Assembly (NCBI GenBank): GCA_004194705.1 | Contig: SADC01000107.1 | Coordinates: 1-64,000 of the forward strand | DNA from: Ditylenchus dipsaci | Lineage: Eukaryota > Nematoda > Chromadorea > Rhabditida > Anguinidae | Length of the DNA stretch: 64,000 nt | Reading direction: 5' to 3' | Part shown: positions 3,207 through 11,196 of the stretch, piece after piece | How the letters are laid out: each line of letters starts with the position of its first letter | Position numbering within the stretch: the stretch's first letter is position 1 | The notes under the pieces: model-generated | What the model was told of the DNA's origin: nothing | The model's database searches: none | Seen by the model: the letters and a program-made list of their open reading frames with translations, nothing else | Position numbers and translations under genes: made by a program

Positions 3207-3690
3207 CTACCTTGGACCAAATACTGAGCTACTTCGTTTTTTTCTGGTGTGTTTTGTTTCCACGAAATTTTCAGGGGTGTCGGGCAGTGTGCCAGCCGGT
3301 CGAGGAATATTTGCCTCTTCTTTGTATAACATCATGGTCACCTTTTTGTTTTGATCAATGTGGACTCCTAAATAAATGAAGCGTCTTGTTTGAACATTTG
3401 CCAGGCGATTCCTCTCTTCGTGTGTACTTCTGTAGTACATAGCTTCCTCGAGTGCTGTCTGTGCATTAGTTTTGCTTCCATACTTTTTCTCAACAGTGAC
3501 TGTATTGCCATCCAATTCGAAGGTTAGGTCAGGCTTGAGCTGCTGTTTATTGGGGAGAGTAAACTCAATCTCATGACGCAAGTCCTTGATTTCGTACATA
3601 CGAGAAGCCAGATAAGAAAAAACGCTGTGAGGGAAGGTCTCATTAAATTTTATCACTGGATTTGCTCTCATCAAGTTTTGGAAAGATTTT
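3207..3690 (-). CDS. PD-(D/E)XK nuclease-like last exon of the fusion gene
   Basis: The last exon opens after TTTTTCAG at 3691-3698 and joins the preceding exon (4087-4224) in phase, giving LRKSFQ. It encodes about 160 residues ending at a stop at 3207. The core reads HEIEFTLPNKQQLKPDLTF, then VTVEKKYGSK, then ALEEAMYYRS. This order (acidic residue, PD, hydrophobic strand, ExK, then a helix with a Tyr) matches the PD-(D/E)XK nuclease usually found after AAA-ATPase-like domains of the PF09820 type. The tail is basic (KHTRKKRSSS), which could be a nuclear localisation signal. The reading frame here is intact. Nuclease activity is not shown by sequence alone, since the ExK is read here as VEKK. 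Confidence 0.7.
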
Positions 3691-5304
3691 CTGAAAAACA
3701 AGTTTTTGTCGTAGGTTAGTTGAGACGAGAAAGGCGGTTTGTAACAATAGTTTTTAGATAGTTTTAGTTTTGTCACTAGCAGTCAATAGTGAACGGTCAA
3801 CAGAATTTTATTTCTTGTTCAGATCTTTAGAAATACTGGTTTTACTAAATTTTGTGAGGGCTGGACGTATAGAAAGTATTAAGCTCGTTTGTAAAACACC
3901 AAAGTACCTAGGTAACCAAAATAGTTCTGATTTAAAATGCTGAATAAAAACCGTTGACATTAATTTGGTGAATTTTCTGTTGGCAGTACTGTGCTCAGGA
4001 CACCTAGTTCCACAACTACACACCACTGTCAAAGTTTTTCTTCCAATTTTCGTTTAATTTCACTAGTCAGCAACTGCTAAATTTACCTTAGAGTCTCGAG
4101 TCTTGAACTTGGAACATCATCACGTGTCAAGTCATAGAGAGCGTCTGTCACTTTGTCGGCCAATTTGCTGTCAAAGGAATACACTCGAATATAGTAGTCA
4201 GTCATTAGGGTCATGAGGTACTGCCTGAATTTTTACTAGACAGTTGATATAAAAACTGAATTTTTATTTAAAAAGTATACCGGTGAGTTTTGAAAGAAAC
4301 CCGCCAATTCAAATTTTCTTTTCGTATTTATTTTTCTCAAAACTGTTATGGGCGTTTTCCTTAAAATTAAAAGTTTGTTAGAACTTTTAACACGGAATTC
4401 GAAATGCCACGCATAAAGCTATCCTTAGAGCTAGAGAAACTGTGAATATTTGAATCGACGGGAGACACCAGTATCAGTGCCAATTACTGATTTCTTTTTT
4501 TATACATTTTACCTTTTCAAATTTTTTTCAAAAAATTCTATATTTCATTCTTGATGATCGCTTTTTTAATTTTGGAATGCCAAATCGTTATGATTTTGTA
4601 ATAAAGGGTGATCTAGGCCAATTTGGATTTGTGTAATTTGTGAAATTCGTACCATTTGAGCCTGGATTATCCTGGCCTCAAAAAGGGAAAAAATCAGAAT
4701 TTTCATAAAAATTTTTGAAAAAGAGGTTAATAATACTTTCCGCATAACGGTAAAAGTACGATTCGAGACAAATCTGATCCGACAAGCTTGATTCCATACA
4801 ATTTTTTTAAACTATTGGAACTTTGAATTGAAACTCTAAAAATTTTTATGACAATTTTATAGAAAATACCACTCTAATACGAAAATATCAAAAAAATCAG
4901 AGCGAGTTGAAATATCCCTTAAAGTAGGTAAATGTTGAGCATTTTTTTCGTGGTCGAGTCAAAACAGCCATATCTCAACTCCCCGTAATTATTTTAACTT
5001 GATCTCAACGGGTTCGGATTCCAGAAAAAAAAATTTAGATTTTTGATCAAAAATTGTAAAAGCTAGAAAAAAAGTGTTTCGAATCGACCGTCTCAAATCA
5101 GATTTGTCTCAAATCGACCCTCGTCCAAGCATAACCTGTATTGATCCACAACCTTAAACTCCGATTACTTATATCCTAGCCCAGAGAAAATAATTTACCA
5201 AAGTTCTGCATTCCGAGTGAGAATTTCACTGAGAATTCTCATTGAAAAATCTCACTCACTCTTACTCAAAGGTTTTTTTTTCAGTTCTCACTCACATTCA
5301 CAGA

Positions 5305-5968
5305 CAGGGCCGCAATTTGGGGGGGGGGGGGGGGGGTCATAGGGGTAATTACCCCCCCCCTTAGGGTGGCCGAAGGCCACCCTAAGGGGGGGTATTCTCT
5401 AGAGGGACTGCTGTAACCAAGGTTTTGTGATTTTTTTTCACTATTTTGTAAAGTTTTCACTAAAAAAACACGTAATTTGCACATATTTTATTATATAAAA
5501 AAGTTGTAGGTAGATTAATTGGAATGTGTCAAAAATATAATTATAATTCAAAGTTACAAAAAATGAATTTGTGAAAAAGTTAATTAAGAACTTATTTGCT
5601 CACTACATTAAGAAGCACACCTGAAAGGGCCTTCAGTGTTTTGAAACAAATAAAAAATGTTTTGAGAAATTCAATGGCTGATGAACGTCTAAATCATCTA
5701 GCTCTTATTTTTGTTCACAAAGACATAAGTTTGCCAGCTCAAGATATAATTAACGAATATGCTAAGTTTAACCATCGTTTATGCTTTGCTTAAATCTGTT
5801 AAAAATAAATAATTGAAAAAATCTAATAAATATTGAAAAAAATTACAAAAAAAGATAAGAAAATACACAAAAATCTCATTTTAAAAATTACCCCCCCTTG
5901 ACTTGAATCTATAGGGGTAATATCAAAGAAATTACCCCCCCCTTGAAAAAGTTGAAGTTGCGGCCCTG
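5305..5968 (+). mobile_element. Non-autonomous hAT element with 8-bp TSD, copy 1
   Basis: The element starts CAGGGCCGCAA and ends TTGCGGCCCTG. Both sides carry the same 8 bases, TTCACAGA (5297-5304 and 5969-5976), as hAT transposons produce. It lies in the long intron of the kinase/AAA/nuclease relic. It contains C/G homopolymer tracts with a hairpin around 5352-5396 (CCTTAGGGTGGCCGAAGGCC...). At 5596-5793 on the plus strand it keeps a stretch resembling the hAT C-terminal dimerisation domain (STPERAFSVLKQIK, LRNSM, ERLNHLAL). A second copy in the opposite orientation lies at 27804-28453. Confidence 0.92.
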
Positions 5969-9351: not shown

Positions 9352-9843
9352 ACCATACCTGCACGCTGAGAAAATCGGCGCCCGGCGCCGACCCAGGCGC
9401 CGGCGTCACAATTAATTCGGCGCCGGGCGTCGGCGCCTGCGCCGACGCCTAAAAGAGGAAGGAAGGAGAAAGGAGGAAGGAGGAAAAAGAGCAAATACGG
9501 CGCCAGGATCATCAAGCCATTTTCAAGCCGGCATCAAGCCATTTTTGTAAATAAAATAATAGAATGTAACAAAGACTAATCTAACATTCTATGTTTTTAA
9601 ATAGAAATTTTTGTATTAGGAATAGCAACAATTATGAGAAATTAAAAATTTATCACAATTATTACATGTGATAAACATAAAAAAAAATTAACTATAAGAT
9701 TAAAAATAACTTGTCTGCAAAACATCTGAGAAAAATTTGAATTTACTAAAACATTGTCAAGACAGCTGAAATCTTAACAGTCAGGCGCCGGCGCCTGACT
9801 GTTAAGATTTTTTAGCCGGCGCCGGCGCCCGTGCAGGTATGGT
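9352..9843. mobile_element. MITE with GGCGCC-rich ends inside the kinase intron
   Basis: ACCATACCTGCACG at the left end is matched by CGTGCAGGTATGGT at the right, with TATT on both sides as a possible 4-bp duplication. Both ends are packed with GGCGCC/GCCGGCGCC words, while the middle is AT-rich and non-coding. It interrupts the intron between kinase exons 9850-9960 and 8929-9302. The superfamily is not identified. Confidence 0.8.
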
Positions 9844-10387
9844 TATTACCTGGTTCAAGACTGGTGACTATCACAGCTGTTTTTGACTTGAAATAATTTC
9901 GTAGAAACAACAACCAAGCGAATAGATATCGCTCTTTTCATTGTAGCCTAACCCACTCCACTGAAAATAAAATTTTAGGTTCTGTAATTTGTTTTTCTCC
10001 AATTGAGAGCTGTCCAAAAAAAAGCTTTCTGAGTCGTAATTTTTTATCAGAAATTTCGGCTGGACACATCTTTTAGATTAAGCAAAATGAAATATTATGC
10101 GTACAAATATTCAGCCATAACTTCTGAGAAAAAAAAACGGATCTGTAGAGCTATTTTTTGGCTTGTAGACAGCTCTACGAATCTTGGTTACACGCTGCCA
10201 CACAGGCCCGACCTTAGAGTGGCTTATAAGTTATAACTAAGGGTTTTACATCACAGAAAATAAGCCGATCTCATCCAAAATCAATTGTAATCATGGTGGC
10301 GTATAGCCAAGGTTCGGCTGTATTCTTATTTTCCTGACTTATTTTCCGACTTACACATTCTGGTGCCATATAATGCGGAGTTCCAAT

Positions 10388-11196
10388 TAGAGATGATACC
10401 GGACGGGACAATTCCCGACCGACCGGAGCATTTTTGGCCTTGTCCCGTCCGAGCGCCCCGCCCGGAATTTTTTTCTGACTGTCCCGTCCCGGTGTCCCGT
10501 CCCGAAAAATCCGCTGTCCCGTCGTCCCGTCCCGGAATTTTTTTCGTCAAATTCTGTCCCGTCCCGTCCCGAAAATTTTCAATGCATCAACTTATTGTTT
10601 TGAGGATGCAATTACATGTAAAAAATCGAATTAAGTAGGAGCGAAAAGCAGAAGTTGCTCTTTTCAGAAACCAACTCGATAATGTTACCAGTTGAATTTT
10701 AAAGTTACCAAGCTTGATCTTTTAGCAAATTTACCGGATGGCATTTCCAATGCTTGCAAAGCTTGCGCAGAAGTACTTGTCGGCCCCCGCAACTAGTGTC
10801 GCCAGTGAGTCGGTCTTTCCCCTCGCGCGAGATGTCTACGATTATCGGCGGACGAACTTGGACCCGGAGAAGGCCGAGATGTTGATGTTCCTCAATCGCA
10901 ATTTGTTCATTAGGTAGAAATAGATCAAGTTGAAGTTGTTGGTTTTGTTTGATGATGGTTGTTTGAATATATAATTTACGGATCATAAAGTGCGATAACT
11001 TAGTCCCGAACGGAAAATTTTCAGTCCCGTCCAGTAGATTTCTATGTCCCGTGAGTCCCGCTCGAAATTTTCGTCTGCGTATCCCGTCCCGGTGTCCCGT
11101 CCCGGGAATTCGCTGTCCCGACGTCCCGTCCCGGAATTTTTTTTTGTCAAATTGTGTCCCGTCCCGTTCTGAAAATGTCTTTTCATCATCTCTACT
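10388..11196 (+). mobile_element. Non-autonomous hAT-type element interrupting the kinase exon
   Basis: The ends TAGAGATGAT and ATCATCTCTA are inverted. Repeated CCCGTCCCG words fill 10405-10570 and 10995-11170. Between them, at 10738-10914 on the plus strand, is a clear hAT C-terminal dimerisation domain (FPMLAKLAQKYLSAPATSV, SESVFPLARD, LDPEKAEMLMFLNRN) ending in a stop. A related short element with the same ends lies at 61341-61537. The left end abuts the conserved kinase SLIGTP codons, so the insertion separates the surviving C-lobe from any N-lobe. No convincing target duplication was found. Confidence 0.8.

What the first reader, a model, noticed from the sequence alone, without database searches (positions are those of the whole stretch)
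3207..10393. Kinase / AAA-ATPase-like / PD-(D/E)XK nuclease fusion in a nematode-like genome
Eleven minus-strand exons can be chained through plausible short introns, most in frame, to give a kinase C-lobe, a low-complexity linker, a PF09820-type AAA-ATPase-like domain and a PD-(D/E)XK nuclease. The linker-to-ATPase join crosses a 58-nt intron (GTATGT...TTCTAG) in frame. AAA-ATPase-like/PD-(D/E)XK proteins are known from bacteria, fungi and scattered eukaryotes, and NTPase plus nuclease or kinase effector combinations have been proposed for Crinkler-like proteins. I know of no such three-part gene in nematodes. A defence, toxin-like or transposon-derived role is inference only.
Basis: partly seen in the sequence, partly recalled or inferred. 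Interest (0 to 1): 0.88.

Follow-up and report, generated by a model that had tools for sequence, protein, structure and literature searches.

The report
Kinase-ATPase-nuclease chimera family, decayed copy
In a genome that matches the stem nematode Ditylenchus dipsaci, a small gene family joins an animal-type NEK protein kinase to a bacterial-type ATPase and a likely DNA-cutting domain; the copy in this window has lost the working half of its kinase and carries stop codons, so it is probably a relic of that family.

Summary
The exons are real. The window is from a 227-Mb assembly whose nearest proteins are Ditylenchus dipsaci. Minus strand 10387-3207 encodes a kinase C-lobe remnant, a linker, a PF09820 ATPase (52.3 bits, cut-off 26.1) and a PD-(D/E)XK-like exon. 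The fusion is supported: four loci carry the kinase-tail/linker exon upstream of the ATPase; the 58-nt junction intron has the same place, phase and length in two copies; between these two, dN/dS is 0.41 in the linker and 0.16 overall. The kinase is a fast-evolving relative of nematode NEK8/9 kinases without RCC1 repeats; pieces of an ordinary NEK8/9 gene lie elsewhere. But this copy is damaged: kinase N-lobe, HRD and DFG exons are gone, a hAT element sits at the break, and there are two TAG codons and two frame changes. None of five loci read is unbroken as assembled, and no locus was seen with full kinase and nuclease together. The assembly is PacBio-only, so indels may be errors. A new domain combination; function is inferred.

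The parts
10355..10387 (-). Kinase piece K1 (IGTPHYMAPEC); donor GTAAGT. Rest of this exon lost: homology to C1307 ends at 10387
9850..9960 (-). Kinase piece K2 (WSGLGYNEKSDIYSLGCCFYEIISSQK, then frame change and stops)
   Evidence: C1307 is open through the same exon
9355..9840 (.). Inverted-repeat (MITE-like) insertion in the K2-linker intron; ends CCATACCTGCACG
   Evidence: C1307 has a short intron here
8929..9302 (-). Exon with kinase tail (...DPCLRPSAVQALEVIQ...) and low-complexity linker with APLLTP
8871..8928 (-). 58-nt phase-0 intron joining linker to ATPase
8489..8870 (-). ATPase exon A1, Walker A variant PRAFGKTT; PF09820 2.1e-6
8186..8442 (-). ATPase exon A2
7888..7969 (-). ATPase exon A3; its join to A4 makes TAG
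6654..7076 (-). ATPase exon A4, Walker B ILLDEYD; 3' half of PF09820 (below cut-off alone)
6419..6606 (-). Exon A5/A6 (NPFTL...QYWGES) with in-frame TAG at 6503-6505
   Evidence: Q at this place in C1307 and P0001
6146..6383 (-). Exon A7/A8 (...HTGYVSVVPG...FRIPNEEV) with a frame change near 6.26 kb
4087..4224 (-). Exon N1 between ATPase and nuclease
3207..3690 (-). PD-(D/E)XK-like exon N2 (LKPDLTF...VTVEKKYG) to the stop codon
10388..11194 (.). hAT-type element (TAGAGATGAT ends, GGGACGGGAC-type subterminal repeats, Dimer_Tnp_hAT at 10726-10917 +) at the break in the kinase

Best explanation
The locus is a damaged member of a Ditylenchus dipsaci gene family in which a copy of a nematode NEK8/9-type kinase, without RCC1 repeats, was joined to a bacterial-type AAA-ATPase-like/PD-(D/E)XK (DUF1703-like) gene. 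Shown: shared exon order at four loci, a conserved junction intron in two of them, past purifying selection on kinase tail, linker and ATPase, and loss of the catalytic kinase exons here beside a hAT element. Inferred: the ATPase-nuclease part came from bacteria or their mobile DNA; in intact members the kinase and NTPase would regulate a nucleic-acid-cutting C-terminal domain; this copy has lost that control and probably no longer works as a kinase.
For: Kinase-tail/linker exon upstream of the ATPase at C107, C1307 (74% identity), C752 and C645 (E 2e-4 and 3e-6 among the fetched DNA; these two are 63% alike over 73 residues there). Junction intron 58 nt, phase 0, in C107 and C1307. dN/dS C107 against C1307: kinase tail 0.21 (68 codons), linker 0.41 (80), ATPase 0.13 (397), all 0.16 (545). 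Deposited model P0002 joins linker to ATPase at the same bases. Kinase in P0002: 42-43% to kinase+RCC1 proteins of D. destructor and B. xylophilus, grouped with them at 95/93 support on a long branch. Five pieces of an ordinary kinase+RCC1 gene at C700, 50-86% to D. destructor. Homology to C1307 stops at 10387, next to the hAT end at 10388, and a kinase search of the whole genome finds only tail pieces in C107.
Against: None of the five loci read (C107, C1307, C752, C645, C178) is free of breaks as assembled. Full kinase (C1307) and nuclease (C107, C752, C645, C178) were never seen at one locus; the nuclease exon was not found on C1307. C752 and C645 show only the kinase tail, no other kinase motif, though their contigs hold only 5.8 and 3.9 kb upstream. 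Selection on the linker is not firm: pN/pS 0.47 (0.27-0.86) for C107-C1307 and 0.47 (0.27-0.90) for C752-C645, but 0.71-0.79 with intervals reaching 1 for the three cross-group pairs run. No transcript was examined. The window copy is not evolving faster than C1307 (8 against 7 changes at 129 sites), so decay, if real, is recent. The bacterial origin rests on database neighbours, not on a tree.
Confidence: 0.72

Rival explanations
1. Two neighbouring genes: a NEK-like kinase ending in the linker exon and a separate ATPase-nuclease gene, duplicated together.
For: Read through unspliced, the linker exon reaches a stop at nt 16-18 of the intron in both C107 and C1307 (VCADS*, VCGDS*). C752 and C645 have 3-5 kb and an extra conserved exon between linker and ATPase. 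Model P0001 has ATPase without kinase.
Against: 58-nt intron with good sites in the same place and phase in two copies; order kept at four loci, two of them only 48-50% alike to C107 in exon A1; the model P0002 splices across; in C107 the first in-frame ATG of exon A1 is at the Walker A itself.
Confidence: 0.15
2. The window copy is a working gene and the breaks are sequencing errors of a PacBio-only assembly; it makes an ATPase-nuclease with a kinase-tail leader.
For: Assembly is 42x PacBio RSII with CANU, no short-read polishing described, 537 of 982 BUSCO genes complete (PMC6929663). No excess of changes in this copy. Each of the other loci read is broken too.
Against: Loss of the kinase exons with a hAT element at the break is not a base-level error. 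The two TAG codons stand where paralogues have sense codons and do not look like single-base indels. A 33-nt stretch that would remove one TAG is shorter than the shortest intron given in the genome paper, 36 bp.
Confidence: 0.2
3. A secreted Crinkler-like effector.
For: In Crinkler-type proteins NTPase+REase and kinase+REase ends are common, with kinase and NTPase thought to regulate the REase (passages of PMC5289972).
Against: No header domain is listed among the Pfam domains of P0002, though its N-terminus is probably a merged neighbour, so this is not decisive. Secretion signals were not tested.
Confidence: 0.05

Closest known systems
DUF1703 proteins (PF09820 AAA-ATPase-like + PF08011 PDDEXK_9), e.g. 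expanded in Cardinium
   Same: Order ATPase - part with TGYL-like and IPNEEV motifs - nuclease; Walker B DEYD; E, PD and ExK positions colinear in one profile alignment
   Different: Spliced; about 19-25% identity to the non-Ditylenchus matches; Walker A arginines partly lost (PRAFGKT); PF08011 not scored; kinase and linker in front
NEK8/NEK9 kinases (kinase + RCC1), nematode members P0116 and P0117
   Same: Kinase domain of the C1307 copy groups with them, 42% identity to P0116, HRD and DFG kept
   Different: No RCC1 listed; long branch; HRDLE instead of HRDLK; shorter C-lobe; ATPase follows instead
Crinkler/CR proteins (NTPase+REase, kinase+REase)
   Same: Works-like resemblance: regulator domains plus a REase-fold end (passages)
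   Different: No header found; the ATPase is of the PF09820 type; three parts in one chain

Membership tests
DUF1703 | PF09820 domain over cut-off | tested here: met
   52.3 bits against 26.1, exons joined with X at breaks
DUF1703 | Walker A RPRRFGKS variant and Walker B DEYD | tested here: inconclusive
   MPRAFGKT: one of three arginines left; DEYD present (motif from passages of PMC1913061)
DUF1703 | PF08011 nuclease at the C-terminus | tested here: inconclusive
NEK8/9 kinases | Kinase domain closest to NEK8/9 | tested here: met
   C1307 copy only; the window copy keeps only fragments
NEK8/9 kinases | RCC1 repeats after the kinase | tested here: not met
   No RCC1 among the precomputed Pfam domains of P0002
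Crinkler/CR proteins | N-terminal header domain | tested here: inconclusive
   None listed for P0002, but its true 5' end is unknown
Crinkler/CR proteins | NTPase and REase-fold domain in one chain | tested here: inconclusive
   Order present; the nuclease assignment is moderate and the frame is broken

The most novel reading that the evidence does not exclude
In D. dipsaci an animal NEK8/9 kinase paralogue exchanged its RCC1 propeller for a horizontally acquired AAA-ATPase/nuclease, giving a kinase-gated, NTP-dependent nuclease family: an independent animal counterpart of Crinkler-type kinase/NTPase/nuclease proteins, kept by selection and now shedding copies.
Probability: 0.25. Interest if true: 0.8.

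Novelty: new variant of a known kind. Interest (0 to 1): 0.55.

Why it matters
If full-length members are expressed, this is an animal gene family built from a conserved cell-biology kinase and a bacterial-type nuclease module best known from bacteria, among them Cardinium symbionts, one group of which lives in plant-parasitic nematodes (PMC6387759, passages). It would offer a test of whether NTPase and kinase parts gate a REase-fold nuclease in animals, and a case of domain replacement after gene transfer.

Tried and rejected
A 33-nt intron at 6499-6531 that would remove the TAG at 6503-6505: rejected, because C1307 and P0001 read through this stretch as protein and it is under the 36-bp minimum in the genome paper.

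APS kinase as part of the fusion (as in model P0002): not favoured. PF01583 lies upstream in C107 and C1307 but was not found in C752 or C645, where only 5.8 and 3.9 kb of upstream DNA exist; it is probably a neighbour carried in the same duplication.

Profile comparison of the nuclease exon with whole DUF1703-type proteins failed, and MAFFT placed the exon at the wrong end, so the second structure job was not used. A fold search and a second look with the low-confidence model were run all the same; DUF1703 itself did not appear; no conclusion is drawn from that. The PDB gave no convincing sequence relative of the ATPase-nuclease part (best E 0.26, a Rab-type GTPase). Rfam at gathering cut-offs: none in the window.

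Searches for print on this combination listed no paper that names it; only PMC papers under open licences were searched and most hits were seen as listings. Seen: PMC6929663 whole text; passages of PMC6387759, PMC1913061, PMC5289972, PMC12445526, PMC5897031; the rest listings only. Labels of PDB entries as PD-(D/E)XK nucleases are recalled.

Full report
WHERE IT IS. The window is bases 1-64000 of contig C107 of a 227-Mb, 1359-contig assembly. The two closest proteins to the ATPase-nuclease exons are D. dipsaci entries (62% and 59% identity over 43% and 67% of the query). The published D. dipsaci assembly is 227.2 Mb in 1,394 scaffolds, PacBio RSII at 42x, CANU; no short-read polishing is described and 537 of 982 BUSCO genes are complete (PMC6929663, whole text). 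So indel errors are expected.

DAMAGE. (a) Homology with paralogue C1307 stops at 10387 and resumes only at 12782 in an APS-kinase exon (window 1-30000 compared); a hAT element starts at 10388; by eye its flanks show no target-site repeat. A search of the genome with the C1307 kinase finds only the two tail pieces in C107. So glycine loop, catalytic lysine, HRD and DFG are gone. (b) K2 changes frame near 9.87 kb; C1307 is open there. (c) Joining A3 to A4 gives TAG; C1307 gives a sense codon. (d) TAG at 6503-6505 where C1307 and P0001 have Q. (e) A frame change near 6.26 kb. The four other loci read also carry breaks: C1307 in A1 and A5/A6, C752 in the linker exon and the following extra exon and with IKKKFG for VEKKYG, C645 in A4 and N2 (frames), C178 in A4 and N2. 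C174 holds only remnants.

IS IT ONE GENE. Seven places in the genome hold ATPase or nuclease exons of this family: C107, C1307 near 190 kb, a tandem pair on C1307 at 120-122 kb, C178, C752, C645 and C174; weaker matches are on C495 and C1153, and the tool calls its counts lower bounds. In four of the seven the kinase-tail/linker exon lies upstream: C107 and C1307 by whole-genome search, C752 and C645 only within the fetched DNA. It was not found in the fetched DNA of C178 and C174; the DNA of the tandem pair was not fetched. C752 and C645 are 48% and 50% alike to C107 in A1, keep APxLTP or APLTP in the linker, and share one more exon between linker and ATPase. The C107 and C1307 junction introns are both 58 nt, phase 0, GTATGT...TTTTTCTAG. 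dN/dS between these two copies is 0.21 in the kinase tail, 0.41 in the linker, 0.13 in the ATPase; left out were K1, A6 and the parts of A1, A2 and A7 not open in both. The linker values argue that the linker was translated, but weakly: pN/pS is 0.47 (0.27-0.86) here and 0.47 (0.27-0.90) for C752-C645, and 0.71-0.79 with intervals reaching 1 for the three cross-group pairs. The kinase tail of C752-C645 (23 codons) gives 0.65 (0.24-1.59). At sites fixed in the outgroup copies, 114 are unchanged, 8 changed in C107 only, 7 in C1307 only and 65 in both.

THE KINASE. The C1307 kinase, as read from P0002 and the exons, has GRGAFG, VVVKEV, HRD, DFG and APE. Its nearest proteins are kinase+RCC1 proteins of D. 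destructor and B. xylophilus (43%), and a tree of 19 rows, chosen by me from the 120 listed, places it with them at 95/93 on a branch of 1.41 against 0.22 and 0.16. PDB matches are led by NEK1, NEK2 and NEK7. Five pieces of an ordinary NEK8/9 gene, kinase and RCC1, are on C700. So the fused kinase is an extra, fast-evolving copy. HRDLE in place of HRDLK, and a shorter C-lobe, leave its activity open.

DISTRIBUTION. A second search limited to proteins of about 586-1865 aa gave 10, of which only P0002 is eukaryotic by name (only the 7991 candidates sharing most words were scored). Among the 120 listed of 443 kinase matches only P0002 shows PF09820 in the Pfam column, some entries of which are cut. 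The method needs shared 5-residue words, so distant relatives can be missed.

READING. Most likely a lineage-specific chimera family, once under selection, of which this copy is a relic. In intact members kinase and NTPase would control the nuclease, as has been proposed for Crinkler-type proteins (PMC5289972, passages); this is inference.

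Noticed in passing
window 12546-13012 (-); L024 about 3180-3420: APS-kinase (PF01583) exons upstream of the fused gene in both C107 and C1307; no ATP-sulfurylase match in the stretches scanned (window 10355-13503 minus strand, L024 1-6323 plus strand); more copies on C101 and C440.
   Followed up: partly
P0002 (D. dipsaci, UniRef): Deposited 1066-aa model joins EF1-GNE, APS kinase, NEK-like kinase and PF09820; probably merged neighbours and a skipped frame break.
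   Followed up: partly
G000:C1307:120154-122326: Tandem pair of ATPase exon A4, probably P0001, a 570-aa model with an internal repeat.
   Followed up: no
G000 C500:13215-13493, C354:117160-118155 (L059-L061): PDDEXK_9 (PF08011) open frames; no PF09820-type tblastn match in the fetched stretches.
   Followed up: no
G000 C1177, C522, C1254, C979 (L001-L003, L005, L006): Further PF09820 loci in the same genome.
   Followed up: partly
window 5584-5793 (+): Second hAT dimerisation piece (9.4e-5) inside the A8-N1 intron.
   Followed up: no
window 16039-17226 (+): Frames that look like a broken mariner-type transposase (by eye, not tested).
   Followed up: no
window about 7260-7540: Fold-back element with long inverted ends in the A3-A4 intron (by eye).
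   Followed up: no
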